The notes under the pieces were generated by a model. It did no database searches. It was not told the DNA's origin and saw only the letters and a list, made by a program, of their open reading frames with translations. Positions 11,928-57,489 of a stretch of DNA of 64,000 bases are shown here, one piece after another. Each line of letters starts with the position of its first letter. The stretch's first letter is position 1. This DNA is from Metabacillus sp. B2-18 (GTDB lineage Bacteria; Bacillota; Bacilli; Bacillales; Bacillaceae): positions 186,001 to 250,000 of the forward strand of contig NZ_CP088246.1 in the NCBI RefSeq assembly GCF_021117275.1, read 5' to 3'. Position numbers and translations under genes: made by a program.

Positions 11928-11941
11928 AAGGAGAGGGAAAG

Positions 11942-40149: not shown

Positions 40150-40178
40150 TTGTATTCGTGATAATACTAGATTATAAT
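40150..40178 (+). promoter_or_regulatory. promoter of the primase leader
   Basis: TTGTAT (40150-40155), 17-base spacer, TATAAT (40173-40178). The start of transcription would be near 40186, just before the GCTC stem. Confidence 0.75.
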
Positions 40179-40193
40179 TTAGTTATTAGTTAT

Positions 40194-40290
40194 TTTTCTT
40201 GCTCAATTGAGCCTTTTAGTGAAGTTATAAGCCCTATAGGGTGGAATAAACACACCACAAGTGTGTCTTTCCTCTCTATAGGGCTTTTTT
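40194..40290 (+). promoter_or_regulatory. leader RNA with terminator, copy 2 (before primase gene)
   Basis: GCTC-AATT-GAGC (40201-40212), then CCTTTTAGTGAAGTTATAAG and the terminator stem AAGCCCTATAG (40229-40239) with CTATAGGGCTT (40276-40286) and T6. An extra hairpin CACAC-CACAA-GTGTG (40251-40265) sits inside the loop. Same order as the leader at 27541-27633, differing in loops. It ends about 40 bases before the gene. Confidence 0.75.
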
Positions 40291-40328
40291 GTGTTTTATA
40301 TCAAATTAGCGTATGGAGGGGAACGGAA

Positions 40329-41570
40329 GTGGCATTTATTACAGAAGAAACTATCGAAAAGGCTAGAAATATAGATTTACTTTTTTTGGCTCAACAACTT
40401 GGGGAGTCTCTACAGCGTTCGGGACAAAGCTTTTTTACTTATCGTAATGGTGGTGAAAATACTCCGTCCCTTTCCATTAATCCTACTAAACACGTTTGGA
40501 AGGACTTTGGTGGAACTGCTGGTGGAAAGGATGCAATTAGTTTTTATTGCTACCGCAAATATGATGACCCTTATTTAAAAGGTAAGGATTTTGTACAAGC
40601 GGTTGAAGAAATTTGTGAGCTATGCGGTATTCCTATTGAATATCAAGATGGCGGCAGTCGTACATTTGATGATGTTGTTTATAAACCTAGGATTGAGATT
40701 CAAAAAGAATCACCTAAAGCATCTCCTGGGTATTTACATGAAGTCTACTCTAAATGGATCAAGCAATTTGATCTCAAAAAGCCACATCTTTTTCACTTGA
40801 AAGAAGTGAGAAAAATCGGTCCACAAGTAGCGAAAATTAGAATGTATCGTTCTTATTCAGATGATATGAATGAAAGATATGGTATTACTAAACAGCTTGC
40901 TTCTAAAGGAGTTAAGCTAGATGGAGTTCCGGGATTTGCAGTTAAAGAAGGGAAGTATGGACCTTATTGGACGTCTGTTGGTAGAGCTGGTTTGTTAATT
41001 CCATTTCGTAGCATCAATAACGAAATTCAAGGATTTCAAATCATGTTTGATGAAAAGCCTGCTAATGGTCAAAAGTACGGTTGGTTCTCTTCACCTATTA
41101 ATCCTGAAAAAGGAACAATACAAGGAGCTGAAATAGGAAATCCAGTGCTACCTTATCATGCAGCTGTTCCCGCTCAAGTTCTCTTGAATTGGATCCTGTA
41201 TAAAGGAGAGCTCTATGACCATATGGATACTGATACTGTATGGTGGGGAGAAGGTGGATTAAAAGGAGATATAGCTTCGAATTATACAAAACAGATACAT
41301 TTACAAGTACCTGGAGTGAATAATTGGAGACTCCTTTTAGAACCTACTATTTCATTACGACCAAAGCGTGTGATATTTAGTTTTGATGCAGATGCTCAAA
41401 CAAAAGAGGATACTGTTCAAACTAATGTATTAAACTCAATAGAAGGTGCGAAAAAAGAACTCAAACCACATGGAATAGAGTTAGGGATTGCATTATGGCC
41501 AGTTGAAAAAGGTAAAGGAATCGATGACCTTGTAAATAACGGTTATAAGCCACAAATCGTCTCTATATAG
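40329..41570 (+). CDS. DnaG-like primase/Toprim protein
   Basis: 413 residues from GTG 40329 behind GGAGGGG; the longer open frame to 40158 is leader RNA. The N-terminal part resembles the CHC2 domain of primases (ENTPSLSINPTKHVWKDFGG then TAGGKDAISFYCYRK) but the Cys/His zinc ligands are not in their usual places. The C-terminal part is Toprim-like: KRVIFSFDADAQ, LGIALWPVEKGKGIDDLVNN. It probably makes primers or handles RNA/DNA ends for the element's own replication. A terminator follows, then radC. Confidence 0.75.
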   Translation: MAFITEETIEKARNIDLLFLAQQLGESLQRSGQSFFTYRNGGENTPSLSINPTKHVWKDFGGTAGGKDAISFYCYRKYDDPYLKGKDFVQAVEEICELCGIPIEYQDGGSRTFDDVVYKPRIEIQKESPKASPGYLHEVYSKWIKQFDLKKPHLFHLKEVRKIGPQVAKIRMYRSYSDDMNERYGITKQLASKGVKLDGVPGFAVKEGKYGPYWTSVGRAGLLIPFRSINNEIQGFQIMFDEKPANGQKYGWFSSPINPEKGTIQGAEIGNPVLPYHAAVPAQVLLNWILYKGELYDHMDTDTVWWGEGGLKGDIASNYTKQIHLQVPGVNNWRLLLEPTISLRPKRVIFSFDADAQTKEDTVQTNVLNSIEGAKKELKPHGIELGIALWPVEKGKGIDDLVNNGYKPQIVSI

Positions 41571-41717: not shown

Positions 41718-44700
41718 ATGAATCAATTATCTTTAGTGAGTGAACGTACAGACAGGTCGTTAGTAAAAGAGTCTGCGGAAAGGTTATATGAAGTGGAGGG
41801 AGATGTTTCCAACCTAAATTTAAGTGAATTACTTTATTTAATGCTAGGGACAGGAACAAAAAAGACTTCATTGCAGCAAATGGTTAATCAAATCCTTGAT
41901 ATGAAGCGAGAGTATGGATTAAAGGGATTAACTGTTGAAAGAGTTATGACGATTGAGGGATTCACTAAACGCAAAGCGGAAATGTTTATTGCTTCTCTAG
42001 AGTTAGGTAGGAGAGTTTATAACGAAAAAGCAGAGAGTCGCTATGTGATTAGGTCACCCAAAGATGCTGCTGACTTCTTAGAGTATCTAAAGGATTATAA
42101 CCAAGAGCACTTTGTTGCTTTGTTTTTAAATACAAAGAATGAAGTTCTTCTTAAGAAAACTATCTTTAAGGGCTCTTTAAACGCAAGCATAGTGCACCCT
42201 CGCGAGATCGTGCGCCCATAAGGACATTTAGAAAATCTGCATTAGCAAAGCAGTAGGGAAATATCACATTCTTTACCCTATCATCAGCCAACTTATCCGT
42301 AAGGGAAACCAAGCGGGGAGTGTAGCATGTTGGAAAAGCCATAAGTTGTCTAGTTACCAAGGCACGACTGAATGGCGAGATGAAATTCATAGATAAGGAT
42401 GAAAGCTGAATTGCTTGAATGATAGCTCAAGGAGGACTACGGGGACCTTCAGCGGGAGGTAACGATTTACGCTGTGCGAAGTATGCATGTTTCTTAAAAA
42501 CTTCGAGAAATATGAAGTGATACTGCTTTGTCCATCTTCTATATGGAAGAAACGAGTGAAAATCATATCCGAAACTATGAAATGCTATGTTTCTATATGT
42601 CTAAATGGGGATTGCCTAAGTCAGAACGCTGTAAATACAGCTATGCATAATGTCCAATTGGATGAAAAATTTCAAGCTGAAAGGCAAGAAAGATGATGCT
42701 GAATATCTGATATGGCAACGGAGCTCTCGTAGTAGTCCGAGATAGGGAAAGCCTATTACATGGCGAAGGGGAGCAGTTTATCTAGTTTAATACCAAATTG
42801 GGAAGGAGCGTGAGGCTCTATGAGAAATCCAAAAGTAGTGTTAAACAGTCTAACTTCCAAAGCTCAAAATAAAACGTACGTATTTGAACGGTTGTATCGA
42901 AATTTGTATAATACCGAGTTTTATCTAGCAGCCTATGCCAAACTCTATTCGAATAAAGGAAGCAATACAAAAGGTGTCAATAATGACACTATTGATGGAA
43001 TAAGCTTAGAAAGAATCGAGCGTTTGATTGAAAAATTAAAAGAGCAGTCTTATCAACCAAAACCAGCGCGCAGAACATATATCCCTAAGAAAAATGGAAA
43101 GCCACGACCTTTGGGTATCCCGACTTTTGAGGATAAATTAGTGCAAGAAGTTGTTCGGAGCATTTTAGAAAGTATTTATGAGCCACAATTCTCAAATCAT
43201 TCGCATGGTTTTCGACCAAATCGTAGCTGTCACACGGCTTTAAAAGAAATACGTAACACGTTTACAGGTACGAGATGGTTTATTGAGGGTGATATAAAAG
43301 GTTTCTTTGACAATATCGACCATCATGTATTAATTGGGCTTTTACGAAAACGTATCAGGGACGAGAAATTAATTAATTTAATTTGGAAATTCCTTAGAGC
43401 AGGTTATGTAGAAGAATGGACTTTTCACAAAACTTACAGTGGAACCCCTCAGGGTGGCATAATTAGTCCGTTATTATCGAATATTTATCTGCATGAATTA
43501 GATAAATATGTAGAACAATATGCACTGGACTATAACAAAGGTAAAAAGCGCAGACATAATCTTATCTATCATAACGTAGCATCAAAGATTAATCATAGTA
43601 AAAGTAAAAATAAACGTGATTGGGAACGGTTAACTGAAGAAGAAAAAGCTGAAAGGCTTAGAAAATTAAAAGCTCTATATAAAGAGTTACAAAGCCATGA
43701 GAGCAAAGACCTCTTTGACCCGAACTACCGTCGAATGAAATATGTGAGATACGCTGATGATTTTATTATCGGGGTTATTGGCAGTAATAAAGAAGCTGAA
43801 CAAATCAAGAAGGATTTAACAGATTACCTAGCAGATAAACTCAAATTAGAATTAAGTGCTGAAAAAACGTTGATAACAAATAGTAAGACAAACGCTAGAT
43901 TTCTAGGATACGACATTCGAGTAGCAAGAGATTGGCAAAGAATGAAAATGTCAAATGGTACGAAAAAGCGAAAGTTCAACTATCAAACGAAGCTATTCGT
44001 ACCACATGAGAAATATATCAAAAAACTCATCAATTTAGGTGCATTAAAAATTGGCAGCAACAATGGGTGGAAACCTGTTCATCGTCCGTATCTAGTGCAT
44101 AACGATGACCTTGAAATTCTTCGTACGTATAATGCGGAAATTGAAGGATTATATCATTATTTTCGTCTAGCAAGCAATGTGCATGTACTTCAATCTTTCC
44201 GTCAAACAATGAAATACAGCATGATTAAAACGTATGCCAGTAAATATAAAAGTACCGTTAGTAAAATCATTACAGAATTTTCGATAAACGGGAAATTCGG
44301 TATACATTATAAAACGAAGGATGGTCCTAAAATTGCCTTTTTTACGGAACAACGAATGGAAAAGAACTCGGAAATCAATAAACAATCAGTCGATATAATT
44401 GAAAATACGTTACTTTACGGTGGCAGAACAAGCCTCATTGAACGCCTCTTAGCTGAAAAGTGTGAATGGTGTGGTGCAGAAAATGTTCCATTAGAAATGC
44501 ATCATGTCAATAAACTTAAAGATTTAAAAGGTAAGAAACGATGGGAACAAACCATGATTGCAAGAAATCGCAAGACGATTGCCATGTGTGTAAAATGCCA
44601 CCATGACTTACACAATGGAAAGTTAGATTGATAAATGGAAAGCCGTATACTCTGAGAGGAGTACGTACGGTTTGGAGGGGAGTTCTTGGAAACCTACTTA

Positions 44701-44938
44701 GGCAACTAAGCAAGGCGCCGGGTTCTTACCCTACTTTAACGAAGCATTAATGAGAAGTGCTGCTTCCGTTATTGTAGCTCATAACCATCCATCCGGGCAT
44801 TCGGTTCCTTCACGTGAGGATATTGAAGTCACGAAGAGACTAGTTGAAGTTGGGAAAATTGTAGGTATCGAGGTTTTAGACCACATTGTTGTGGCAGCCA
44901 ATGATTTTACATCTATAAAGGAAAAGGGTCATGTTTGA
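41718..44938 (+). CDS. radC: RadC-like JAB-domain protein interrupted by a group II intron
   Basis: Exons 41718-42209 and 44735-44938 join in frame to 231 residues. Exon 1 holds the helix-hairpin-helix region (MTIEGFTKRKAEMF) and the start of the JAB domain (VALFLNTKNEVL, GSLNASIVHPREI). Exon 2 resumes with FNEALMRSAASVIVAHNHPSG and PSREDI, the metal-binding end. RadC family proteins are widespread on plasmids and phages; their function is still unclear. ATG 41718 follows CACATTTTAGGAGG. Without splicing only a 167-residue fragment lacking the metal site is made. Confidence 0.9.
42210..44734 (+). mobile_element. group II intron 1 (IIA, LtrB-like) in radC
   Basis: 2525 bases. Begins GTGCGCCC (GUGYG consensus) and ends ...CCCTAC (AY). 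Domain V is visible at 44640-44673 (AAGCCGTATACTCTGAGAGG ... GTACGGTTT), with domain VI after it. It encodes a reverse transcriptase/maturase close to LtrA of the lactococcal Ll.LtrB intron. Exons flanking it rejoin in frame. Confidence 0.93.
42820..44631 (+). CDS. ltrA: group II intron maturase/reverse transcriptase with HNH (LtrA-like)
   Basis: 603 residues (LtrA has 599). RT blocks are present: RRTYIPKKNGKPRPLGIPTF, HGFRPNRSCHTAL, EGDIKGFFDNIDHHVL, TYSGTPQGGIISPLLSNIYL and the active site YVRYADDFII (about 308-317). The maturase X region follows, then a C-terminal HNH endonuclease with CEWCGAEN, MHHVNKLKDLKG and CVKCHHDLH. It splices the intron and drives its retrohoming. Ribosome site AAGGAGCG. 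All motifs intact. Confidence 0.95.
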   Translation: MRNPKVVLNSLTSKAQNKTYVFERLYRNLYNTEFYLAAYAKLYSNKGSNTKGVNNDTIDGISLERIERLIEKLKEQSYQPKPARRTYIPKKNGKPRPLGIPTFEDKLVQEVVRSILESIYEPQFSNHSHGFRPNRSCHTALKEIRNTFTGTRWFIEGDIKGFFDNIDHHVLIGLLRKRIRDEKLINLIWKFLRAGYVEEWTFHKTYSGTPQGGIISPLLSNIYLHELDKYVEQYALDYNKGKKRRHNLIYHNVASKINHSKSKNKRDWERLTEEEKAERLRKLKALYKELQSHESKDLFDPNYRRMKYVRYADDFIIGVIGSNKEAEQIKKDLTDYLADKLKLELSAEKTLITNSKTNARFLGYDIRVARDWQRMKMSNGTKKRKFNYQTKLFVPHEKYIKKLINLGALKIGSNNGWKPVHRPYLVHNDDLEILRTYNAEIEGLYHYFRLASNVHVLQSFRQTMKYSMIKTYASKYKSTVSKIITEFSINGKFGIHYKTKDGPKIAFFTEQRMEKNSEINKQSVDIIENTLLYGGRTSLIERLLAEKCEWCGAENVPLEMHHVNKLKDLKGKKRWEQTMIARNRKTIAMCVKCHHDLHNGKLD

Positions 44939-45350
44939 TCAACAGCTACAGCAATCTCATTGCTTAAGGATAAGAGAGGGCATGACTTTAAATAAAGGAG
45001 ATAGAGTAGAAGTTTACTATAACCTTGTTAAAGGTGGAATTTTTTCAATTAAAAGCCTGGTAAAAGGTACATGTTATGGGAAGGTGGTTGCCTATGCCCC
45101 CACTGTACTTATGTCTAATGGGAAATTCGTAGTTAGTAAGCCAGGTATTGAAAAAATAAGAAGTGAGCAACGAAAAAGAGTTTGTGCAGTTGTTCGCGGA
45201 ACCTTTGAGGGAATAGGTTCTCCTATAAACGGAGAAAAGGTCTATTTTAACCCTTACATTACTGACTTATTTACAAGAGCATCTGATGGAGTTGAAGTAC
45301 ATTCAGCCGAGATGATCTATTTTTATAACAATATTTGTGAGGTTCATTAA
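44931..45350 (+). CDS. element protein, unknown
   Basis: 139 residues from ATG 44931, which overlaps the radC stop; ATG 44982 behind AGAGAGGG (122 residues) is an alternative. Beta-rich, with KGDRVEVYYNLVKGG near its start. No known family. It belongs to the run of closely packed element genes after radC. Confidence 0.7.
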   Translation: MFDQQLQQSHCLRIREGMTLNKGDRVEVYYNLVKGGIFSIKSLVKGTCYGKVVAYAPTVLMSNGKFVVSKPGIEKIRSEQRKRVCAVVRGTFEGIGSPINGEKVYFNPYITDLFTRASDGVEVHSAEMIYFYNNICEVH

Positions 45351-45367
45351 TTACACATTTTAGGAGG
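45350..45367 (+). repeat. recurrent ribosome-site motif, copy 4
   Basis: ATTACACATTTTAGGAGG between the genes at 44931 and 45375. Confidence 0.85.
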
Positions 45368-45374
45368 ATGAAAG

Positions 45375-45770
45375 ATGAAAGCGAAATTTCGTACTGAAAA
45401 GGTTGAATATGTAATAGAAAATGGTGGTTATTCTCGAAATGGACATTTTGTACAAGGAGAGGTTAAGTTAAAGTCACTATCTATTGGAAGTGAAGCTCAG
45501 ATTGAAATAAAAACAGGAGCATACACTCAACTTATTCGTACTGATATTGTTCATTCAATTGATCTTTGCCCAGCTATCTTTAAAATGCAAATGGCTACTG
45601 AAGTCCATCCGTATCGTATTAAAGTGGTAAATAAGAATTCTAAACCAGGGATTTTTATGAAAATCGGTACAGAGAAGGAAATTCAAGCTTATGTAAAAGA
45701 TAGATTTAAGGGTAAAAGAGTAACATACGCAATTGAGCCAATCCCTACAAGATTGGAGCTGGTTCAATAA
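45375..45770 (+). CDS. element protein, unknown
   Basis: 131 residues behind the recurrent CACATTTTAGGAGG. Predicted beta-rich and basic (IEIKTGAYTQLIRTD, YVKDRFKGKRVTY). No family recognised. Its stop overlaps the next start (TAATG), so the two are translated together. Confidence 0.7.
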   Translation: MKAKFRTEKVEYVIENGGYSRNGHFVQGEVKLKSLSIGSEAQIEIKTGAYTQLIRTDIVHSIDLCPAIFKMQMATEVHPYRIKVVNKNSKPGIFMKIGTEKEIQAYVKDRFKGKRVTYAIEPIPTRLELVQ

Positions 45771-45994
45771 TGAAGACTTATAATGTAGGTGAAAAAATCG
45801 AAGTGATTTTAAAAGGGAATAAAAAACCGATTAAAGCCGAATTCGTAAAATGGCAACCTATTGAAGATCGAGCGGGCAACTTCTTTTTAGTTTTAAACTT
45901 TAAGGGAGAACTGCGATATATCATCGATGGATTTATTGGTTTTATTAATGGACAACCTTTTACACCAATTGAGCTTAGTAGGGTAAGTAATTAA
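45770..45994 (+). CDS. small element protein, unknown
   Basis: 74 residues starting in the TAATG overlap. The small beta-like domain (GEKIEVILKGNKKPIKAEFV) resembles the SH3-like small proteins common in phages and plasmids. No family assigned. A terminator follows directly. Confidence 0.65.
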   Translation: MKTYNVGEKIEVILKGNKKPIKAEFVKWQPIEDRAGNFFLVLNFKGELRYIIDGFIGFINGQPFTPIELSRVSN

Positions 45995-46010
45995 ATAATA
46001 CATTACTTAG

Positions 46011-46042
46011 AAAACCGATTCTTTTTATGGATCGGTTTTTTA
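46011..46042 (+). terminator. terminator before the methyltransferase gene
   Basis: AAAACCGAT (46011-46019) pairs with ATCGGTTTT (46031-46039), then TTAT. It stands just ahead of the next TTTTTAGGAGG ribosome site. Confidence 0.75.
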
Positions 46043-46061
46043 TTTTTAGGAGGAAAAATAA

Positions 46062-49000
46062 ATGGCTAGGATTGCATCGCAAAGTAAAGGTGGATTTTAC
46101 GCAACACCAGAAGGACAATTATCACTTATATTACCTCACCTTCAGATTAATCAAGATGAGGAAACTGAAGTAATAAATCTATTAGATCCTTGTGCTGGTG
46201 AAGGGAAGGCTCTTAAACAGATTTCTCAGTATCTACAAACGTATGACGTAGCAGTTGCAAGCTTTGGTGTAGAGCTTGAAAAATCTAGAGCAAAAAAAGC
46301 TGAGGAACTATTAGATGTTGTCATAAATGAGGGATATGAATCGATAAGGACGGAACCTAAATATAGTTTGTTATGGCTTAACCCTCCTTACGATGAAGTA
46401 GTGTGCGTTGTTCCTAGACAATCTGTTTAGAAATAAGCAGTAAAACTAGGGGGTAAATCAAATTGTAAAGATTTATCTAACTTTATACCTGAATTGAATG
46501 GTGTAATTCCATTCCAGATTGAATGTTGGCAATCTAGCTCTAATATCCGACATGCAAAATAAGGATGCCTTTATCTTGTATGAAGCTCGGTGAAAAGCGG
46601 GAAAACAGACCTGAGAAGCGGTTAGTGAAGTACGCGAGAGGCTAAAAGTCACTATGCTTACGAACAGGAACCTTCTACGACGCCTCGTTACGTAGACCTG
46701 CTCGAACATGAAGAGTTTGGCTCCCACAGTGGAGTTCAGTCGTGGTAGATAAAGGACTTCGTTATTCTACTACATTTAACCTCTAAAGGTTATTTGTCAT
46801 AAGTCCCCCAACAATGGACAAAATGACGACTGACGGGGTAAAGAAGGAAGCTAAGGTGACCACATTAAAGCTAAGGTATAAGGAACAGCGGAGGCTCGAT
46901 AGGAAATGTAAAGGAAGGCATATTCCAATGTTCCTCGATGGTAGGAAATGACCATCTAAATCGAGTGGCAGCAGCCTGTAGTAATGATGAAACATCTGTA
47001 ATAGATGTGGAGTGAAGGGGCATAGTCTATATCTATTTAGTTCAAACCCTAACAGTTATGGAAGCCGTTGTGCGTAACTGACTAAACCATTAAACGGTTA
47101 ATCTCTGAAAAAAAGGGGTGAAGCCGATGGTACAAAAACTTAACTATCCAAATACAGAATTAGAATTTCGCACTCTACAAGATAAAATGTACCAAATTAC
47201 AAAGGATTGTCTTGATAAAAATGAACCAGTTAGCTTTAAAGGATTATTAGAAATAATATCATCCGAAGCGGTTATACTATCCGCCATCCACAGAATAAAA
47301 AGAAACAAAGGAAGTAAAACACCTGGGGTGGATGGTAAAAATATAAACGATTTAATCCAGCTCCCTTATGAAGAGGTTATCAAGTTGGTAAAAGATAAAC
47401 TTACAAACTATAAACCTCATAAGATCAGAAGGGTGCATATACCTAAAGGTGGTTCTAATGAGGTGAGACCACTAGGTATACCTACAATGATAGACAGAAT
47501 TATTCAGGAATGTATCAAAAGCGTAATTGAACCAATTATCGAGGCTCAGTTTTTCAGACATTCATACGGGTTCCGCCCTATGCGAGATACCCATATGGCA
47601 ATGGAGAGGATTAAGGATATCGTGTACAAAACGGGATTCCACTGGTTTGTAGAAGGGGATATTAGCAAATTTTTCGATAACGTAAACCATACCATACTTA
47701 TTAAACGATTATGGGGTATGGGGATACGTGACAGAAGAGTATTAATGATAATAAAAAGTATGCTTAAAGCTGGCATACTTAATGAACTCCAAACCAGTGA
47801 AATAGGAACACCTCAAGGGTCGGTGATTTCTCCACTCCTAGGTAATGTTTACCTAGATGCTATGGATAAATGGATAACTAGAGAGTGGGAAAATAAGCAG
47901 ACCAAACACAAATATTCGAGTAACCAAAATCGTTTTAAAGCATTACGAACTAGAGGCAACTTTAAAGAAGTTTACCTAGTCCGATATGCTGATGATTGGG
48001 TTTTGATTACTAATTCCAAACGAAACGCTGAGGTGTGGAAATGGAGAGTCTCCAAATTCCTTAAAGATAGATTAAAGCTTACATTGTCGGATAAGAAAAC
48101 TGTCATCACCAATATTCGTAGGAAAGCAATTAAATTCGTTGGGTTTGAATTCAAAATTATCAGAGGCAAATCAAAGAATGGTTATATATCAAGAGTGAGT
48201 CCTAATAAAGAAAGGCTTCGGAAGAAAATCAACGAGATTAAAAAAGAAGCTCATAAACTCAGATTTTCTAAAACGAATCTGGCACATCACTTTAATCTTA
48301 TCAACTCAAAGATTAGAGGCTTAATAGAGTATTACACTCCTGCTAACACTGTAAATGTTGAATTGCAAAACTACCAACATAGTCTCCATAACAAAGCTCT
48401 GAAATCATTGCAGAGAAGGAGGACAAGAGGTAAAAATGCTCACAAGTTTTGGGAGTTGCTACCCGCTAATGAAGTGGACAATTTACGGTCTGTACATAGC
48501 CGTTACAAGACCAAAATTCTTGTAATTAAAGCAGACAATATGAAAATTGGTCTTACTTCTCTAGCATTTTCAAAATGGGAAATGCCACCTCTCAAAAATC
48601 AAAAAGAAACACCTTACTCTATCGAGGGTAGAGAGCTGTATAGAAAGAGGACAAATAAAAAGCCTGTTCTCGCTAGAGCAGATGAACTACTATCCACCCA
48701 TCTATCAGCCGTGCTTGCCTTTAATAGACCTGGTAACAGATATAACTTTGAATATTTCCTTAACAGAGCATACGCATTCAATAGAGACAAAGGAAAATGC
48801 AGAATTTGCGGAGGGCTAGTTAGTACATACGATGTTACTATTCATCATATAAGACCTAATTTACCTATCGATGAAGTAAACAAAGTATCTGAACTAGCTA
48901 CAGTTCACGAAAAGTGTCACGCCATGATTCACGATAAAAAGGATTACTCTCTACTCAATACAAAAGTGTGGAAGAAGATTAAAGTATTTAGAGAAAAGTT

Positions 49001-49821
49001 AGGTGCTTTGAATTACTAGATAAAGATGGAACGCGGTATGAGGTGAAAGTCTCACGTACCGTGTGAAGTGGGGGAAAAGAGCATCTTAACGAGTAAAGTC
49101 GAAGAGTGCTCTTACCTATCACTATTTTCATGAGAGAACTGAATTACGCTTTCTCAGGACGCTGACCAGCAAAACAAAAAACGTACTCGTTGATAATGGG
49201 TTACTAATGTTCTGTGTACCTCAATATGTGTTAGGAGCATGTTCTTCTCTTCTAGCTGGGAGGTTCAAGGATATAAAAGTTTATCGTTTCACTGACGAAG
49301 CGTATCCGGTATTTAAGCAAGTTGTTGTTTTTGGAAAGTTTGGAAAGTCTCATTCCAGTGAAGCTAGAAAACAAACGAAAGCATACCTTAAAGAAATAGC
49401 GGAGCAAGGTCCTGAAGTGTTACCAACCATTGAAGAGATTGAAGAAATGTTTATAGTGCCTAGTAGCACAGACATTCAATGCTTTAGAGCTGGTAAATTA
49501 CGTAATGAAGAACTTGCTGAAGATCTTGCTCAATCACTCGCCTATCAAGAATTTGAGAAAAGAGTTACACCAAAAGCGAAGAACAGTACGATGAAAAATC
49601 CGCTTCTTCCTTTAAAGGTGACTCACGCAGGTATAGCCGTTGCTAGTGGAGCAATAGGAGGAAACTTCGGAAATCACATTATTGTAGGTGTAACAAAGCA
49701 GGTCAATGAAAAACAAGAAGTACTCGATGAAGAAGGATTAGCGAAACAGGAAGTATATATCAAACATTACAAAAGTGTCGTTCGTGTATTTACCAATGAT
49801 GGTATACATGAGATTCAATAG
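46062..49821 (+). CDS. DNA methyltransferase (DUF6094-like) interrupted by a group II intron
   Basis: Exons 46062-46400 and 49123-49821 join in frame to 345 residues. Exon 1 has SAM motif I LLDPCAGEGKAL (about 40-51) and motif IV LLWLNPPYDEV (about 105-113). Exon 2 resumes with YFHERTELRFLRTL and VLVDNGLLMFCVP, the expected fold after NPPY, and then a C-terminal part of unknown use. N6-adenine-type chemistry is likely from NPPY. Without splicing the protein ends ten residues after the catalytic motif. Ribosome site TAGGAGG. Confidence 0.85.
46401..49122 (+). mobile_element. group II intron 2 in the methyltransferase gene
   Basis: 2722 bases. The 5' end reads GTGTGCGTTG; both GTGTG (46401) and GTGCG (46403) fit the consensus, but only 46401 with the 3' end ...TATCAC keeps the exons in frame. 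Domain V is visible around 49030-49064 (GCGGTATGAGGTGAAAGTCT ... GTACCGTG). A long 5' ribozyme part (46401-47120) precedes the encoded protein. Confidence 0.88.
47127..49019 (+). CDS. group II intron reverse transcriptase/maturase with HNH (second type)
   Basis: 630 residues from ATG 47127 (in-frame GTG at 47118 overlaps the ribosome site AAAGGGGTG). RT marks are NKGSKTPGVDGKNIND, EVRPLGIPTMIDRIIQE, HSYGFRPMRDTHMA, EGDISKFFDNVNH, EIGTPQGSVISPLLGNVYLD and YLVRYADDWVLI. Maturase domain, then HNH with CRICGGLVS, IHHIRPNLP and HEKCHAMIHD. It differs clearly from the LtrA-like protein in intron 1, so the two introns arrived separately. Confidence 0.93.
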   Translation: MVQKLNYPNTELEFRTLQDKMYQITKDCLDKNEPVSFKGLLEIISSEAVILSAIHRIKRNKGSKTPGVDGKNINDLIQLPYEEVIKLVKDKLTNYKPHKIRRVHIPKGGSNEVRPLGIPTMIDRIIQECIKSVIEPIIEAQFFRHSYGFRPMRDTHMAMERIKDIVYKTGFHWFVEGDISKFFDNVNHTILIKRLWGMGIRDRRVLMIIKSMLKAGILNELQTSEIGTPQGSVISPLLGNVYLDAMDKWITREWENKQTKHKYSSNQNRFKALRTRGNFKEVYLVRYADDWVLITNSKRNAEVWKWRVSKFLKDRLKLTLSDKKTVITNIRRKAIKFVGFEFKIIRGKSKNGYISRVSPNKERLRKKINEIKKEAHKLRFSKTNLAHHFNLINSKIRGLIEYYTPANTVNVELQNYQHSLHNKALKSLQRRRTRGKNAHKFWELLPANEVDNLRSVHSRYKTKILVIKADNMKIGLTSLAFSKWEMPPLKNQKETPYSIEGRELYRKRTNKKPVLARADELLSTHLSAVLAFNRPGNRYNFEYFLNRAYAFNRDKGKCRICGGLVSTYDVTIHHIRPNLPIDEVNKVSELATVHEKCHAMIHDKKDYSLLNTKVWKKIKVFREKLGALNY

Positions 49822-49833
49822 GAGGAACTAATT

Positions 49834-50478
49834 GTGAGATTAATATCAAATATAGATTGTGGTTACTGTCATGATCAGAACGCCTTAGCTTTATGTGAAG
49901 AATGCGGAGGAAAAGGATATCTGCAGATTAGGTTTTCGAAAGATATCCCATACTATCTATCTTTATCATATGTGAAGTTTGATCCGCTACCAGGACTCTT
50001 TGGAGTGTTTTTGTTAGAAGATGAGATATTAGGTGTAGGTAATGTTGATATTTCAAGTCGTAGCCTAGTCATTTATGATCTTCAATCTTTTAAAGGAATT
50101 TACGGACAATCTTTAATGGTGAAAAGCCTTTGCAAGATGGAAAGTATACATTCTATTCATGGATTCACTACCAGTCAGGATGCTATCTTTTGGGAGATTC
50201 TTGGAGCAGACATACAAAGAGACAAGCAGGAATGGACTTTTACTATCTTCGTTGGAGAAAGAAGCCCTATACAAAGTAGGTATGCTCATATTAATTGGTC
50301 TGAATACTTTGATTGGTTTGATTCTGCAACTGATATGGAAGCTGATTTCATGATGAGGTATACACCACCTTCTTTACGTAAGGAGCAGGTAGATCATTAT
50401 TATTCAAATGGTTTTTACTTAGTCGAGAAAAGTTCAAGAAGGAACTTATCTTTAGAGGAAGTTTTTACTCTATATTAA
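49834..50478 (+). CDS. protein with DnaJ-like zinc motif, unknown
   Basis: 214 residues, GTG start behind TAGGAGG, 12 bases after the methyltransferase. The N terminus has CGYCHDQNALALCEECGGKG (two CxxC pairs with a GGKG turn, like DnaJ zinc modules). The rest is a mixed domain with many aromatics (FDWFDSATDMEADF). No family recognised. Confidence 0.7.
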   Translation: MRLISNIDCGYCHDQNALALCEECGGKGYLQIRFSKDIPYYLSLSYVKFDPLPGLFGVFLLEDEILGVGNVDISSRSLVIYDLQSFKGIYGQSLMVKSLCKMESIHSIHGFTTSQDAIFWEILGADIQRDKQEWTFTIFVGERSPIQSRYAHINWSEYFDWFDSATDMEADFMMRYTPPSLRKEQVDHYYSNGFYLVEKSSRRNLSLEEVFTLY

Positions 50479-50504
50479 GAGATTACTATTTTCATTTTTA
50501 TAAT

Positions 50505-50551
50505 GAGAGGAGGCAAGCTACTGTTCGTAAAGAATAGTAGCTAATTTTATG
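50505..50551 (+). promoter_or_regulatory. ribosome site separated from its start by a hairpin
   Basis: GAGAGGAGG (50505-50513) lies 35 bases before ATG 50549. Between them AGCTACTGTTC (50516-50526) pairs with GAATAGTAGCT (50532-50542). With the hairpin formed the effective spacing is 2 + 6 bases, a normal distance. Confidence 0.65.
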
Positions 50552-51394
50552 AACATTAATAAATTAACTGAGTATGCTAAAAGCCTAATTGTGCCGCTGC
50601 CTAATGAAATGAAATCGTTTGGGGATTATCGAATTCATTGTAATTTTAGTGGAGGTAGAGACAGTATAGCCTGTGTTTTACTACTTTTATATGGTTACGG
50701 TGTACCGAAAGAACAAATAGAGATGGTTCATTTTAGGGTGGATGGTAAGCAAGAAGCATTTTTTGATTGGAAGGAAACTGATGAATATCTAGAGTATTGC
50801 CAAGAAATTTTAGGATTGCCAATGGTTATTCTTAACCCCGATAAAAGTTTAAAAGAGAGAATAACTGATAGGGGAAAATGGCCTTCAGGGGCAACTCAGT
50901 ATTGCACATCTTACCAAAAACGCGATACCTACAGTAAATGGGTAAGGAGCTTAGGTGCTGGAAATTATTTGTGTGTTAGCGGTGAAAGGGCGCAAGAAAG
51001 TCCAAGACGTGCTAATAAACCCAATTTCCAAGTTTACAAGACAGCAAACGCACCAACAAAAGGGCGATGCGTTGATTGGCTTCGTCCTATCCATCATTTA
51101 ATGAAGGATCAGGTGATGAAACTAAATGAGCTTGCTGGAATTAAGCCACACCCTTGTTATCAATATGTTTCACGATGCAGCTGTAAGTTTTGTATTTTTC
51201 TTTCACCGAATGAGATGAAGAAGGTCTCAGAACTTTACCCTGACGATTTTAACGAATTAATTCGTATGGAAAAGGAAATGGGACACACGCTTAAATGGGA
51301 AAAGAAAAATCCGCTATCGTTAGTAGACTTTATAAAGAAGGCAGAAGGATCAGACAAACAGTTATCGTTTGATTTACCATGTTTTTTTGAATGA
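50549..51394 (+). CDS. PAPS-reductase/ATP-pyrophosphatase-like enzyme
   Basis: 281 residues. The PP-loop NFSGGRDSIACVLL (about 31-44) binds ATP or an adenylylated substrate. Later come CTSYQKRDTYSKW, VSGERAQESPRRA and a Cys cluster SRCSCKFCIFL (about 207-217) that could bind a metal or Fe-S cluster. Phage- and plasmid-borne members of this superfamily are related to DndC of DNA phosphorothioation, but no dndB/D/E genes are present. A role in nucleotide or tRNA/DNA modification is possible. The start relies on a hairpin-spaced ribosome site. Confidence 0.82.
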   Translation: MNINKLTEYAKSLIVPLPNEMKSFGDYRIHCNFSGGRDSIACVLLLLYGYGVPKEQIEMVHFRVDGKQEAFFDWKETDEYLEYCQEILGLPMVILNPDKSLKERITDRGKWPSGATQYCTSYQKRDTYSKWVRSLGAGNYLCVSGERAQESPRRANKPNFQVYKTANAPTKGRCVDWLRPIHHLMKDQVMKLNELAGIKPHPCYQYVSRCSCKFCIFLSPNEMKKVSELYPDDFNELIRMEKEMGHTLKWEKKNPLSLVDFIKKAEGSDKQLSFDLPCFFE

Positions 51395-51487
51395 AAAATG
51401 AAATTATAAAAGGAGGGATTGTCCTCTGACTTTGTTTTTTAGGTCAGGGGTATATCCCTACCTAATAAAAGTCATGGCAAAATACGT
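51395..51487 (+). promoter_or_regulatory. structured leader of the helicase gene
   Basis: AGGAGGG (51411-51417) lies 70 bases before the helicase ATG. Between are hairpins CCTCTGAC/GTCAGGGG (51423-51450) and AGGGG/CCCT (51445-51459), and a five-codon ORF (MAKYV, 51474-51491) whose stop overlaps the helicase start as ATGA. Confidence 0.5.
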
Positions 51488-54400
51488 ATGAATATTTATT
51501 TACAGAGTACTGATCGTCATTTTGAAGCAAAATTACAATTTATTGTGAAAGAGGAAGATCATGTGTTAGCTGCCTCTTATATAGGAATTCCAGAAGCGGT
51601 TACTGCTATAACAGCAGGTATTATTGAAGGTAGAACAGTGGTTGTAGAAGGAAAGGAGCTTACAAGAGGTCACGATCCTTTTAGGAGGATTGAACGTAAA
51701 GTAGGTATTGGTGATGTGGCTCATGCCTTTATTTATAACTCATTGACTACTTTAGATGGTTTATCTGGTGTTATTGATAGTGATAAGAACACGAGGGGGT
51801 ATATCTTATCGCTTCATGGAAACATCAAAGAAGATGTTGCTCAACATATGATTTCACGCTTTGGGTTACCACCGGAGTGGAGTGACCATTATGCCGGTCT
51901 TTTTGGATTTATGATCGAGGACTTGGAAGTCATTCAGAATCCAGCCTTTCAACATTTAAATCCAAATTTAAGGGCCCTGAAGATAAACGGCAGCGAAAGT
52001 GATGTTTTAGAGGTAGTAGAAATGGCACTAAAGAATCGCTTACTTACCATTCCTGAATCGGAGATCGAAGGTAAATTTGATCCTTCTTGGTCGTTAAAAG
52101 AATATATGGTTAATAACGCTAGTGCAATGAATAAAAAATTAAGTGTTATGAGACCATTGCATACCATGAAAGATAAGGTAGATCCTGCAATAGCAACTAT
52201 GAGTAGAGTTCCTTTTCCTGCTCAAACACATGTTATTCAGGGATTAATAAACGGATTAGATGTTGAGAATTCGGTTATAACATCTGCGAACATGGGGACC
52301 GGAAAGAGTATACAAGCTATAGGTGTCGCTCACGTCTTAAACGAACGGAAGAAAAGAAGAGGCTCTAAAAGAGGGACTGCTGTTTTGCTTTCTGCTCCTG
52401 GTATAACACTTAGTAAATGGGAGAAGAAAGAGATTGGTAAAACTGTCCCACATGCGAAAACATCAATTGTCCGGTCATCAGAGGATGCATTGAGGCTTTT
52501 GGAGCGTGTTCGTAATGGCTACCGCCCAACAGTAGGTGATCTTGAATTTACCATTGTGGGTATTGATAAAGCCAAAAGAGACAGTGAACCATACTTTGCA
52601 GGCATATGGAAACGTGTGAAGAATACTTCTGATTCTTATGGATGGCATTGCCCAGATTGTGGACGCCAATTATATAAAAAAGAAGAAGGAGAATGGTTTC
52701 CTTTAGATTGGTCTGATGTAGCTTTCGGATCTGCACCTACAATAGAGCAGTTAATAGATGCAAGAGAAGAAAAAGCATTACTACCGAATGGACTACTAAA
52801 TTCATGGAAAGTGAAATGGAGAAGGTCTAAACAATTCTTTAAATGCTCATATCAAGAAGGTGTACAAGGTTACCTACCAGATGGTGCTTCACCTTGTGGA
52901 ACAAAACTGTATCGCCCCGCAGTCAAAAGTCGTGGAGAAACGAATAAGCGTCCTGTAGCTAACATTTCTAAAATCTTTAAGCGCATGAAAAAATACTTTG
53001 ATTTATACATTGTGGATGAGGTCCATCAATGTAAAGCAAGCGGTAGTGGTAGGGGAGATGCTTTTGCTCAAATGGTTAAATCAGCAAAAAAGACTCTCAT
53101 GCTTACAGGTACCCTTGTAAATGGAAAATCTACATCGATCAAAGAAATTCTTTGGAGAACCAATCCAAAATCCTTATTAGATAAAGGGATGAATGATTCT
53201 ACAGGGGATTTGACATGGGCGGAACGATATGGAAAGTTAAAGCAAATCGTTTATTTACAGGATGAAGTGAATCATCAAGGATGGGTCACAAGACAGCGTA
53301 GAAAGCCGATGCAACCGACAGAAGAGCCAGGTATTGCACCACATATGACAGCTGAATTTTTATTGCATAAAACTGCTTTTCTTGATTTGGAAGACTTAGG
53401 GTTACCACTGGTGGAACTAAAGGAGAAACCAATCTTTATTACTCCGAAACCAGAACATGAAGCGGCATATAGACAGTTTCATGAGGTAATGTATGATGAG
53501 TGTGCTAAAAGGGCACGAGCAGGTGCTAAAGGTGCATGGTCAAAGTTTAACCCTGCAACCTTAAATTACGCTGCTAGACCCGATTTAGGGGCATTTTATA
53601 CATTTGTTAGTGTTGATGGGCAAGAAACAATTGTATCAGCTCCACAACTTACTGGTTATACAGCAAAGGAAGAATGGTTGATAGATAATGTGAAGAAGGA
53701 ATTATCTGAAGGTAGAGGAGTTGTTATCTATAACAACTATACAGGCGAATACCAGCTAAATGAGAGAGTTCATGACATCCTTAAGGAAAATGGTATTCCG
53801 AGTAGAATTTTAAATGAATCCAATACCGAGAAGCGTTCTGAAGTCCTTCAAAAGTTTGAGGATGAGGGAGTAAAAGTCATTATAACCAATATGAAGTTGG
53901 TTGAAGTTGGTTTAGATTGTGCGACAAGAAGTCGCTAATGGATAGTGCTTCATTATGAAGCCACCTTAGTCATCAATGGTGTTCCCGCCCGAAACTGCTT
54001 TTCGAGTAATCGAATTGTTCGGTTGCATGAGGGTTAAGTGCTTAATGGAGGATTTTACACAGAAATCCAATAGAGCTAGGAAAAGATTGAGAAGGTATAA
54101 GCGAAGCTGAACCTTTGTAGACTCCGTTACCGACAGCAGACGTACTGTGGTTGAACAAGTCTGTAGAAGCGGATAGGAAAAGCCCTGCGGTCTAGGGGCT
54201 GTGCGATGACCCACAGATCCGTCGGAGAAAAGAAGGATGCCTAACTCAATCGCATCTATCGTTAGTGAAACTTGGTAAGCCCTAAGTGTTCCTCTCATTT
54301 GAGGTAGGATGATCGTGAGAGATTCACAACTACACAGAGGGTAAAGGATTGTGGAAAAAGCGAATGCCAGTAGACCGAAAGTTCAGACGAAAACTCATTT

Positions 54401-57051
54401 GTATAAGTCGCTGGATAGGGCAATACCCTAGCTGAAAGGCTGCTGACTTCCACATGGTCTTCAACACGAAAGAAAGCGAAAAGAATAATCCTATAGAGAG
54501 GGAGATATGTTATGAATACTAACAGGAATGTTAAGTCGGCTGTTTCCCCACTAGTGGAGAATTGGCACTCAATAAATTGGGTGAAAATTCAACGCTATGT
54601 TAGGAAACTTCAACAACGAATCTATCGTGCAGAACAATTAAAACAAACAAGAAAAGTAAAAAAACTTCAAAGATTACTTTTAAGAAGTAAGGCTAATCTA
54701 ATTTTAAGTATTAGACGAGTAACTCAAGAGAATAAAGGTAAGAAAACAGCAGGTATAGATGGATACATTTCCAACACGCCTCAAGAAAGAATTGCTTTAT
54801 TCAACAAACTAAGTAAATACAGTGTTAGAAATATCAAAGTCAAACCAGCTAGAAGAACCTATATTCCTAAGAAAAATGGCAAACTTCGTCCACTAGGTAT
54901 TCCAGTTATTGTTGATAGGGTATATCAAAATGTCTTCAAAAATACACTAGAGCCACAGTGGGAATCAAAATTTGAAATGACTTCTTATGGATTCAGACCT
55001 AAGCGCAGTACTCATGACGCAATGAGTGATTTATTTAATAAATTAAGTAAAGGTAGTGCTAAGGAATGGATTTTCGAAGGTGATTTCGAAGGATGTTTCG
55101 ACAATTTAAATCATGATTATATTATGGAATGCATTAAAAACTTTCCTAATAAATCGGTGATTCAAGATTGGCTCGAAAGTGGATATATAGATAATGATGT
55201 ATTCAACGAAACAACGAAAGGAACACCCCAAGGTGGTATCATCTCGCCATTGTTGGCAAATATTGCACTACATGGTATGGAAAAAGAAATTGGTGTTAGG
55301 TATATCCATACGACACGACAAGGAGATACTTTATATCAGAATTCCGTTGGTGTTGTTAAATATGCTGATGATTTCGTTATTGTCTGTCCTACGGAAGAAG
55401 AAGCACTAGGAATGTATGAGAAATTGCAACCTTACCTAAACAAGCGTGGTTTAAATCTTGCAAAAGATAAAACAAGAGTTGTTCATGTTAGTAAAGGGTT
55501 CGACTTCCTAGGATTTCACTTTAGACAATACCCTACCAAAGATGGAATGCGGTTATTCATTAAACCTTCCAAAGATAGTGTTAAACGTGCGAAACAAAGG
55601 ATTAAAGAAATATTCGAATGGGGTAAAGGTAAAGAAACCTCGGTCCTAATTGAAAGATTGAATAGTGTCATTAGAGGAATTGCGAATTATTGGTCACCTA
55701 CTGTTACCAAAAAGCTTTTCCGAGATATAGATAATTATATCTTTAAAAGAACATTAATCTATTTACGACACAGACATAAAAAAATAAATCGAATAAATGG
55801 ATTATTAAGGAATACTTCAAACCTGACCATACGGGTGTAAGTAAAGACAAATGGATTCTTACGTGTCCGCATGATACCACTATTCAGATTATTAGAATGA
55901 GTTGGGTAAAAATCGAAAGACACATTAAAATCAAGCAGTACAACAGTCCATTTGACGCTTCACTTAAAGAATATTTCGAACAGCGAGATAGAAAAGAGTT
56001 TGACAAAGAAAACACTCTAGCAAAACAAAAACTTGCTAAAAAGTCTAAATACAAATGTAGAGTTTGCCGAGAATCACTTGTTGGGGACGAGCCATTAGAA
56101 GCAAATCATATAGTACCGAAAATTATTGGTGGTCGTGACACTTATGAGAACCTTGAATTACTTCATAAGTCCTGTCATAAACAACATCATGCATTATTGG
56201 AGAGATACGGTAACGGTAAGCAATTACCAAAGGTTCAATCTTTCTTGAAAAGAAATAATGTAGATGTTAATAGCAAACAAGCGGTGAATCATATGAAGAA
56301 CGCTTTTAAGAAATTCGTATATTAATTGTCTGGATGAAAGAGGGCTTGAGCCGGATGTGCTGAGAGGTACAAGTCCGGTTCTTAGGGGGGAAGGAGATGG
56401 TAACATCTCTGACCTACCCGACTACTTGCTTGGCCGACACTTATTTTTAATCAATTAAGTTATGAAGTAAACGTTGTCCGTCAGTCTGCAAAAAGAGCAC
56501 ACAGAATTGGTCAGCACCGTGAGTGTAGGGTTCTAATTCCTATTCTGAATGGTACACAAGAGATGAGTCAATTTAAGAAGGTAATGAGTGCTAGAGGTCA
56601 TGCTTTAATGACAGAAGGTAGATTAGATAGAGGGGAACTTGCTAAATATAGTTATGATGAGCAGTCATCATTAGCAACTGATCTTGCTGAATGTTTTGCA
56701 GAAGCCGATCTTGCCAATGCGTGGGAAGAACTTGCTGCAATTGAATATCAAGATGTTGAAATGATTGAAGAAGCGAATTTTGAACATATCTTAGCTGATA
56801 GAATGAAAGAACTGGCAGAACAGACATTAAAACTCTGCGGTGTTTCAAAAGTTGTGCCTATTGATCAATCTGAATCTAATATAGTAACCGATAGTACTGA
56901 AGAAGATTCATTATTTAACATCACTGAATCGAGTGGTTCCAGTGTGGATCTTGAGGATGATGGAATAATTGCATTAGTAGATATCACAAAGTATAAGAAA
57001 AAGAAAACATTAAAGGCACCAACTGAAAATCAACTGGGTTTTGTTTTCTAA
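51488..57051 (+). CDS. SNF2-type DNA helicase interrupted by a group II intron
   Basis: Exons 51488-53918 and 56423-57051 join in frame to 1019 residues. Motif I SANMGTGKSIQAIG (about 264-277), motif II YIVDEVHQCKAS, motif III LMLTGTLVNG. In the middle there is a zinc-ribbon-like insert (CPDCGRQLY and later CGTKLYRP). The second RecA domain runs VKVIITNMKLVEVGLD, then in exon 2 LLAWPTLIFNQLSYEV and VRQSAKRAHRIGQHR (motif VI). The intron cuts between motifs V and VI, so unspliced mRNA gives an inactive protein. The element helicase or remodeller. The start codon lacks a nearby ribosome site (see the leader). Confidence 0.9.
53919..56422 (+). mobile_element. group II intron 3 in the helicase gene
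   Basis: 2504 bases. Starts GTGCGACAAG and ends ...CTACCCGAC. Domain V is visible at 56348-56381 (GAGCCGGATGTGCTGAGAGG ... GTCCGGTTC). The junction falls after the first base of a Leu codon and restores GLD-LLAW. Its protein gene has a frameshift, so mobility may depend on slippage or on help from another maturase. Confidence 0.93.
54512..56325 (+). pseudogene. group II intron reverse transcriptase/maturase with HNH, frameshifted in an A run
   Basis: The first frame (54512-55840) has all RT blocks: TAGIDGYISNTPQERI, RRTYIPKKNGKLRPLGIPV, SYGFRPKRSTHDAM, EGDFEGCFDNLNHDYI, GTPQGGIISPLLANI, VVKYADDFVIV. After HRHKK in an A7 run (55778-55784) the frame drifts. One added A restores KSNKWIIKEYFKPDHTG and the downstream frame, which carries the HNH domain (CRVCRESLVGDE, EANHIVPKI, LLHKSCHKQHH). 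The homopolymer could allow slippage, so activity is not ruled out. Third distinct IEP type in the window. Confidence 0.85.
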
Positions 57052-57413: not shown

Positions 57414-57489
57414 GGGAAAATATAGTATTCATAGTTTTTATAGAAAGAGTTTCATAAATGTATCACTATCTAATCTGGAGGTGATGTTT

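What the first reader, a model, noticed from the sequence alone, without database searches (positions are those of the whole stretch)
41718..57051. Three unlike group II introns interrupt three genes of one element, all in frame
Within 15 kb, radC, a DNA methyltransferase and an SNF2-type helicase each contain a group II intron (2525, 2722 and 2504 bases). I can see GUGYG starts, AY ends, domain V hairpins and in-frame exon joins (492+204, 339+699 and 2431+629 bases all divide by three). The encoded proteins are of three different types, each with an HNH domain. Each insertion lies beside a conserved motif: before the RadC HNHPSG, after NPPY, and after GLD. Three independent arrivals in one operon suggest a site-rich target family or a regulatory dependence of the element on splicing.
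Basis: partly seen in the sequence, partly recalled or inferred. Interest (0 to 1): 0.85.

Follow-up and report, generated by a model that had tools for sequence, protein, structure and literature searches.

The report
Three site-faithful introns invade plasmid genes
Three unrelated self-splicing retroelements (group II introns) have each recently inserted into a different DNA-handling gene of one bacterial plasmid, and relatives show that these genes are repeatedly hit at a few mostly conserved spots, by many separate intron lineages.

Summary
A plasmid of the same genus (G054, 98.5% identical over the joined 9.3 kb) carries radC, DUF6094 methylase and SNF2 helicase without introns. Its DNA joins exactly at the predicted sites. 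This corrects intron 2 to 46401-49125 (2725 nt). Domain V is present three times. IEP 3 is frameshifted between its maturase and HNH parts. The introns come from three distinct reverse-transcriptase lineages. Intron 1's nine closest relatives found in other genomes of the order all sit at the same codon boundary of chromosomal radC, and an identical copy (2525/2525) sits in this strain's own chromosomal radC. The nearest relatives found for introns 2 and 3 sit at the same DUF6094 and SNF2 sites in Paenibacillus and Niallia. The module is a recurrent target: 10 of 25 domain V hits on 21 contigs lie in SNF2 or DUF6094, with 0.65 expected. One SNF2 gene holds four introns. The 11 known SNF2 sites lie in conserved motifs. 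Best reading: independent retrohoming lineages that exploit conserved sites, much as inteins do. Nothing here supports regulation by splicing. Splicing itself was not tested.

The parts
41718..42209 (+). radC exon 1 (RadC residues 1-164)
   Evidence: (PF04002 profile 1-55)
42210..44734 (+). group II intron 1, 2525 nt, GUGCG...AC; identical copy in chromosomal radC (G000:C1:3587908-3590432, minus)
42820..44631 (+). IEP 1: RT (YADD), maturase (PF01348), HNH (PF21368)
44638..44734 (+). intron 1 domains V-VI (RF00029, 60.9 bits)
44735..44938 (+). radC exon 2
   Evidence: (PF04002 profile 56-120)
46062..46400 (+). DUF6094 methyltransferase exon 1, ends NPPYDEV
46401..49125 (+). group II intron 2, 2725 nt, GUGUG...AU (3' end corrected from 49122)
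46476..46648 (+). intron 2 domain I-IV elements (RF02004, 39.6 bits)
47118..49019 (+). IEP 2: RT (YADD), HNH just below the Pfam cut-off
49029..49125 (+). intron 2 domains V-VI (RF00029, 55.7 bits)
49126..49821 (+). DUF6094 exon 2, 696 nt
51488..53918 (+). SNF2-type helicase exon 1, ends EVGLD (phase 1)
53919..56422 (+). group II intron 3, 2504 nt, GUGCG...AC
54512..55840 (+). IEP 3, first open part: RVT_N, RT (YADD), GIIM maturase
55897..56325 (+). IEP 3, HNH part in another frame (ORF broken by a frameshift)
56346..56422 (+). intron 3 domains V-VI (RF00029, 60.9 bits)
56423..57051 (+). SNF2 exon 2
40158..41570 (+). DUF3854/CHC2 primase-like gene of the same module; uninterrupted here, holds a group II intron in NZ_CP062791 (L012)

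Best explanation
The window shows three independently acquired mobile group II introns of three distinct lineages. Each is expected to splice in frame with help of its own maturase, and each belongs to a lineage that, over short and middle evolutionary distances, retrohomes to one fixed site of one gene family. Intron 1 is a radC-site intron found in chromosomes of several Bacillales families; it most likely copied itself from this strain's chromosomal radC into the plasmid's own radC. Introns 2 and 3 belong to lineages found at the same DUF6094 site and the same SNF2 GLD site elsewhere. They met in one operon because this replication/repair module, kept by a family of large Bacillota replicons, offers many target sites and is hit again and again by unrelated introns. 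Shown: exact empty sites, the identical chromosomal copy, same-site relatives, enrichment in the module, conservation of SNF2 sites. Inferred: splicing, retrohoming as the route, the chromosome-to-plasmid direction.
For: Empty sites at 98.5% DNA identity over 9307 aligned columns. Intron 1 identical on chromosome and plasmid (2525/2525) while the flanking 50 nt match at only 30 (5') and 33 (3') positions. 9 of 9 other-genome RT1 relatives at 79% identity or more (397 genomes searched, up to 3 candidates scored per genome) sit at radC HPRE^F; also G060, 91% DNA. G054 has no full-length intron 1 on either replicon. Predicted EBS1 AACUUC pairs 6/6 with the chromosomal IBS1 and 4/6 with the plasmid one. 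Same-site sisters: window 3 + L013C (100/98) and window 2 + L039b (100/99; 91/92, with L085 added). On the RT tree 29 rows of 9 multi-copy sites need 8 site changes, the minimum; 2000 shuffles needed at least 16. 13 SNF2-borne RTs form 8 separate clades. 10 of 25 domain V hits on 21 contigs lie in SNF2/DUF6094, expected 0.65 (hits tallied by me). The 11 SNF2 sites are on average more conserved than any of 20,000 random sets of 11; as 5 motif clusters against the helicase core p = 0.00015.
Against: No RNA data: splicing is unproven, and IEP 3 is frameshifted (though after the maturase domain). Covariation of EBS1 with IBS1 in the radC lineage is not significant (permutation p 0.10-0.35), so the pairing and the direction inferred from it are weak. 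EBS1 was not found for intron 2. The intron 2 site is not conserved by my measure (39th percentile), and three DUF6094 sites together give only p = 0.07. Site fidelity for introns 2 and 3 rests on one same-site relative each. The next relative of IEP 2 (L085, a broken RT, 63% and 54% identical over its two parts) sits in SNF2, not DUF6094, and deeper relatives in radC and recA: lineages do change sites in the longer run. The enrichment leans on one replicon with four introns; without it and the window it is 4 of 13 against 0.36 expected, P = 0.0004.
Confidence: 0.83

Rival explanations
1. Regulatory dependence: the plasmid keeps the introns because conditional splicing controls RadC, methylase and helicase output.
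For: All three are in sense orientation and in frame; unspliced transcripts give truncated proteins.
Against: A 98.5% identical same-genus plasmid has none of the three. 15 of 21 surveyed contigs show no group II intron in SNF2/DUF6094. The introns are of unlike lineages. In-frame placement is what selection for harmless insertion alone would leave.
Confidence: 0.05
2. The introns are old residents and the G054 plasmid lost all three precisely, for example by recombination with cDNA.
For: Precise loss can occur; same-site relatives exist in distant hosts.
Against: Needs three precise losses in a plasmid 98.5% identical. Intron 1 is identical to the chromosomal copy although the two radC genes are diverged, which shows recent movement of that intron at least.
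Confidence: 0.08
3. Intron 1 moved the other way: the plasmid brought it and infected the chromosomal radC.
For: Plasmids are known carriers of group II introns (PMC3261151); the two copies are identical.
Against: All 9 other-genome copies and the G060 copy are in radC genes closer to the chromosomal radC than to the plasmid one. EBS1 fits the chromosomal IBS1 better, 6/6 against 4/6 (pairing itself not proven).
Confidence: 0.2
4. The genes are dead and the introns merely sit in decaying DNA.
For: IEP 3 is frameshifted; IS and integrase elements flank the module.
Against: Joined exons are without internal stops, and RadC, DUF6094 and SNF2 are 95-99% identical in protein to the uninterrupted G054 alleles.
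Confidence: 0.05

Closest known systems
Group II introns in bacterial radC and recA (O.i.I2 of Oceanobacillus iheyensis; Geobacillus kaustophilus recA), as cited in review PMC4424553 (passages seen)
   Same: Group II introns in DNA repair genes of Bacillales; intron 1 is a radC intron; relatives of IEP 2 sit in recA.
   Different: O.i.I2 has an IEP without YADD, IEP 1 keeps YADD; whether O.i.I2 uses the same radC site was not tested. Here an identical copy sits in chromosome and plasmid.
B-class introns with a 3' extension (domain VII) in plasmid genes for primase, helicase and TraG-like proteins of Bacilli (PMC3261151, passages and part 1 of section 4 read)
   Same: Large Bacilli plasmids; replication and transfer genes as hosts; B.th.I6-like introns share one homing site; intronless alleles; identical plasmid and chromosomal copies (B.th.I7). 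IEP 2 is 52.5% identical to the IEP inside B.psf.I1's coordinates on pBpOF4-01 (that NC_013792 and CP001879 are the same plasmid is my inference).
   Different: The window's introns have no 3' extension; three unlike lineages in one operon; the plasmid and chromosomal copies here are at homologous sites, those of B.th.I7 are not.
[quoted passage not shown] only its title seen, in a reference list)
   Same: Several mobile introns in one DNA-metabolism gene.
   Different: Another phylum, gene and set of introns; here four group II introns of several lineages lie in one SNF2 gene (L101).
Inteins and group I introns at conserved sites (Swithers 2009, PMC2814812; abstract and passages seen)
   Same: Insertion at highly conserved motifs of the host protein (SNF2).
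   Different: That study found no such preference for group II introns (combined p = 0.49); the SNF2 sites here show one, the DUF6094 sites only weakly. The proteins differ, so this is an exception to its generality, not a re-test of its data.
Group II introns in phages (PMC12350094, passages seen)
   Same: [quoted passage not shown] covariance-model search and joined exons compared with intronless homologs.
   Different: Plasmid and chromosome, not phage.

Membership tests
mobile bacterial group II introns | GUGYG start and AY end at exact exon junctions | tested here: met
   GUGCG/AC, GUGUG/AU, GUGCG/AC
mobile bacterial group II introns | domain V-VI structure | tested here: met
   RF00029 60.9, 55.7, 60.9 bits, gathering score 40
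mobile bacterial group II introns | domain I-IV structure | tested here: inconclusive
   RF02004 for intron 2 only (39.6 bits); no Rfam 5' model hit at gathering score for introns 1 and 3
mobile bacterial group II introns | IEP with RT (YADD) | tested here: met
   TIGR04416 above its cut-off and YADD in all three
mobile bacterial group II introns | maturase domain X | tested here: inconclusive
   Pfam maturase domain in IEP 1 and IEP 3, none reported for IEP 2
mobile bacterial group II introns | HNH endonuclease domain in the IEP | tested here: inconclusive
   IEP 1 met; IEP 2 21.1 bits against cut-off 21.4; IEP 3 domain in a separate frame
mobile bacterial group II introns | intronless cognate alleles with precise empty sites | tested here: met
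mobile bacterial group II introns | EBS1-IBS1 pairing | tested here: inconclusive
   intron 1 60/66 pairs over 11 chromosomal copies but covariation p 0.10-0.25; intron 3 6/6 (its Niallia sister 5/6); intron 2 not found
mobile bacterial group II introns | splicing in vivo | not testable with these tools
   no transcript data
B-class introns with 3' extension (domain VII) | about 53-56 nt extension between domain VI and the 3' exon | tested here: not met
   the exon starts right after the domain V-VI hit in all three window introns; an extension is seen by eye in relatives L013A, L085, L101c
radC-site intron lineage | insertion at radC HPRE[VI]^F with an IEP at least 79% identical | tested here: met
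   intron 1, own chromosomal copy, and 9 of 9 such hits in other genomes

The most novel reading that the evidence does not exclude
In Bacillota, mobile group II introns have a life style, not described in the papers that I saw, that mirrors inteins and group I introns. Many independent lineages each keep to one site, mostly in a conserved motif, of a DNA-handling gene (radC, recA, addA, nrdE, ssb, DUF6094, SNF2) and switch gene only rarely. The replication/repair module of large conserved replicons works as an exchange hub, where such introns pile up (up to four in one gene) and jump between plasmid and chromosome homologs in the same cell.
Probability: 0.5. Interest if true: 0.72.

Novelty: new member of a known kind. 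Interest (0 to 1): 0.62.

Why it matters
Group II introns are taken as ancestors of spliceosomal introns. The review that I saw in passages says that most bacterial ones sit outside housekeeping genes (PMC4424553), and one study found that group II introns show no preference for conserved sites (PMC2814812). Here unrelated lineages repeatedly occupy the Walker A, DEVH and GLD motifs of one helicase, and same-site introns are each other's kin across host families. A matched pair of nearly identical plasmids, one empty and one with three introns, plus an identical chromosome-plasmid radC intron pair, makes intron gain, target choice and cross-replicon homing directly testable.

Tried and rejected
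(2) Multi-copy spread of introns 2 and 3 in the genome: rejected, one full copy each.
(3) Viral contigs as a source of introns 2 and 3: two scans found no relatives. SNF2 relatives in phage records are few (5 records) and distant, all under 60% identity.
(4) EBS1-IBS1 covariation as proof of pairing: not significant. EBS2/IBS2 were not resolved. EBS1 of intron 2 not found.
(5) A genome-contig scan with the SNF2 alignment gave only 6 loci. L043 (26% identity) was dropped.
(6) RT3-like relatives at 55-61% (L161-L166) do not sit in readable coding joins. Four of the six (L161-L164) were kept in the tree as 'RT3like', and not counted as site-faithful.
(7) Rows dropped from the RT tree: L140, L147 and L150, because no open frame over 300 aa with the catalytic motif was found. 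Not given to it: L085/L156 (broken RT), L124, L126, L127, L130, L133, L135, L137, L138, L146, L151, L165, L166, L167. L148 and L160 are the window's own; L157 and L158 are the same introns as L088 and L101c. After the report check I added the first open part of L085's RT to a small tree: it falls just outside window 2 + L039b, whose support is then 91/92.
(8) From enrichment: the chromosomal copy G149 was left out. Named plasmids were tested apart (6 of 19 against 0.37 expected; one of the six, L115, has an unresolved junction), and some of those were fetched because their hits looked split, so only the genome-search set is close to unbiased. For some contigs (for example G440) the DUF6094 gene was not located, so the count is a lower bound.
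(9) From the conservation test L081, L094 and L100 were left out as near-identical or duplicate. L085 and L105 enter as pieces cut short by their insertions. Two sites were not scored: L114 and L115 in DUF6094.
(10) Junctions not resolved by script: L115 (DUF6094, near residue 10), L111 (ssb, 5' part outside the locus), and, L013A, L101c and L085, which I read by eye. The group I site of L084 rests on tblastn ends alone.
Full report
WHAT IS THERE. The window is bases 186001-250000 of contig C2 (330,352 bp) of an unnamed two-contig Bacillales genome of 5.47 Mb (the order is inferred from the named relatives). The module DUF3854/CHC2 primase-like gene, radC, small genes, DUF6094 methylase, PAPS-reductase-like gene and SNF2-type helicase lies on the + strand. 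Three of its genes are interrupted. Rfam finds three domain V-VI structures, and in all three the end of the hit is the intron's 3' end. Joined exons give uninterrupted proteins. The RadC halves are exactly contiguous on the Pfam profile, 1-55 and 56-120.

THE DECISIVE CONTROL. A plasmid contig in a genome of the same genus (G054, L081) is 98.5% identical over the joined 9.3 kb and carries none of the three introns. The alignment passes from 42209 to 44735, from 46400 to 49126 and from 53918 to 56423 without gain or loss (at the radC junction one base can be aligned on either side). Relatives in Cytobacillus and Brevibacillus plasmids agree at the protein level. The window also differs from G054 by an IS3-like insertion at about 35810-37293.

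THREE LINEAGES. IEP 1 has RT, maturase and an AI2M-like HNH domain; IEP 3 has RVT_N, RT and GIIM; IEP 2 has RT and a weak HNH. On the RT tree of 52 rows IEP 3 lies in a 6-row clade and IEP 1 in a 25-row clade, both at 100/100. IEP 2 lies outside both, in a 9-row clade at 100/100; the deeper join of its larger group is weak (87/49), and the program warns of long branches. From recall I would call them ML-like, CL-like and class B; the last is backed by 52.5% identity to the IEP inside the B.psf.I1 coordinates on pBpOF4-01, listed as class B in PMC3261151. IEP 3 matches the single 604-residue Niallia ORF in two frames that meet between the maturase and HNH parts: a frameshift, or an assembly error in an A-rich stretch.

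INTRON 1. Its exact copy, 2525 of 2525 bases, sits in the chromosomal radC of the same strain at the same codon boundary, while the flanking 50 bases of the two radC genes match at only 30 and 33 positions. All nine IEP relatives of 79% identity or more, found in 397 genomes of the order, sit at this radC boundary, as does G060 of the same genus. Only 2 of 21 genomes of the genus (G000, G060) carry a full-length copy; G054 has only pieces of a more distant relative. A loop in the intron, AACUUC, pairs 6 of 6 with the last six exon bases of chromosomal radC and 4 of 6 with those of plasmid radC. Over the 11 chromosomal copies 60 of 66 positions pair, but shuffling introns among exons does not make this significant (p 0.25 for pairs, 0.10 for Watson-Crick pairs). 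The likely route is chromosome to plasmid; I hold that at about 0.75.

INTRONS 2 AND 3. Each is single copy. The nearest relative found for intron 2 is in Paenibacillus periandrae (L039), RT 64.5% identical, at the same DUF6094 site and phase. The next is L085, a broken RT 63% and 54% identical over its two parts, and it sits in SNF2 instead; with it in the tree window 2 and L039b remain sisters at 91/92. Deeper kin sit in radC and recA. So this lineage has changed genes in the past. The nearest relative for intron 3 among 72,556 plasmid records is in Niallia circulans NZ_CP053316, 80% identical; the next is 58.6%. It sits at the same GLD^L site and phase of a distant SNF2 homolog.

THE MODULE AS A TARGET. 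Group II introns lie in SNF2 or DUF6094 in 13 of the 43: the window, L013 (three in SNF2), L039 (two in DUF6094), L040 (one in each), L041, L085, L088, L098, L101 (four in SNF2), L110 (ORF-less), L111, L114 and L115 (the L115 junction is not resolved). Two more, L012 and L084, hold a group I intron at Walker A of SNF2. NZ_CP062791 also has a group II intron in the DUF3854 gene, and Planococcus lenghuensis appears to have one in ssb. Because some of these loci were chosen for split hits, the cleaner count is on the 21 non-chromosomal contigs found by genome search with SNF2 E-values under 1e-20: 25 domain V hits, 10 of them in SNF2/DUF6094 against 0.65 expected by length, on 6 of 21 contigs. 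Without the two richest contigs it is 4 of 13 against 0.36. This null spreads hits evenly by length; equally conserved control genes were not tested.

SITES. Eleven SNF2 sites are known (ten by group II, one by group I introns). They cluster at Walker A, DEVH, TGT..GK, WAERYG and GLD..NQ; several differ by one to three codons (group I site). By Jensen-Shannon conservation over 29 proteins they lie at the 83rd to 99.9th percentile. None of 20,000 random sets of 11 reached their mean; as five clusters within the helicase core p = 0.00015. Three DUF6094 sites give p = 0.07, and the window's own intron 2 site is only at the 39th percentile. radC sites were not scored.

SITE FIDELITY. Nine sites have two or more RT rows in the tree (29 rows). 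The tree needs eight changes of site, the minimum; shuffles need 16 or more. Introns of one gene are not one family: the 13 SNF2 rows form eight separate clades. More distant IEP 1 relatives sit at other motifs: radC HNHPSG^D, AddA-like KQ^SIYRF, NrdE-like NPCGEQ^PL, SSB-like RMQTRS^YDN, a lytic transglycosylase-like GHMQ^FMP. IEP 2 relatives sit in radC VLDH^LIIG and recA DAEH^ALD. Apart from radC these genes were named from recalled motifs and not run against a family library. Not every relative gave a readable join (for example L133, L137, L138, L146, and the RT3-like L161-L166).

READING. The simplest account is that each intron lineage retrohomes to one target for long stretches of its history, moves between homologous genes across plasmids, chromosomes and host families, and rarely switches gene. 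Three such lineages met here because this module is a conserved bundle of targets. Splicing is expected, since the host genes stay intact, but no transcript was examined. Nothing points to regulation.

LITERATURE. Found by full-text search of an open library only. I opened five papers, in abstract, passages or one section part (PMC4424553, PMC2814812, PMC12350094, PMC3261151, PMC4649490). Nothing I saw there describes introns in this SNF2/DUF6094 module, four group II introns in one bacterial gene, or the radC chromosome-plasmid pair. A search for DUF6094 or group II intron ranks papers with both terms first, and the top five listed have no mention of DUF6094. Subscription papers were not seen.

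Noticed in passing
L101 (G129:C2:40000-59999), about 700-13400: One SNF2-type gene interrupted by four group II introns of several lineages; the same contig has three more domain V hits.
   Followed up: yes
L013 about 10862-13780, L085 about 9580-9740 (minus), L101 about 9731-9900: Introns with an extra hairpin between domain VI and the 3' exon, like the domain VII extension of PMC3261151, in Niallia and two unnamed genera (by eye).
   Followed up: partly
L012 about 12812-13867 and L084 about 10477-11511 (minus): Group I introns at the Walker A codons of SNF2, the same motif that three group II introns use about two codons further on; the one in L012 holds a LAGLIDADG gene.
   Followed up: partly
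L167 (G060) 1501-4026 and about 4090-5156: A radC with two introns 63 nt apart: a full radC-site intron and an ORF-less one at HNHPSG^.
   Followed up: partly
L119 and L149 (G448); also L127 (G428): Chromosomal radC with two introns of different lineages, at HPRE^F and VLDH^L in G448; in G428 a second RT hit lies close to the radC-site intron and exon 2 stops matching at residue 183.
   Followed up: partly
L110:10295-11186 (Rossellomorea marisflavi plasmid): ORF-less group II intron of 892 nt in SNF2 at DEVHE^; who supplies its maturase is not known.
   Followed up: no
G000:C1:835596-838117 and G000:C2:46480-49000: Two more relatives of intron 1 in this genome, in an AddA-like gene (KQSI^YRF) and a lytic transglycosylase-like gene on the plasmid (GHMQ^FMP).
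   Followed up: yes
window 30216-32935: Type I restriction locus reduced to an HsdM N-terminal part directly followed by an HsdR part lacking its N-terminus.
   Followed up: no
window 35810-37293 and from 57210: An IS3-like element missing from the G054 plasmid, and a two-integrase element (57373-60533) lying where the match to the fetched G054 stretch ends.
   Followed up: no
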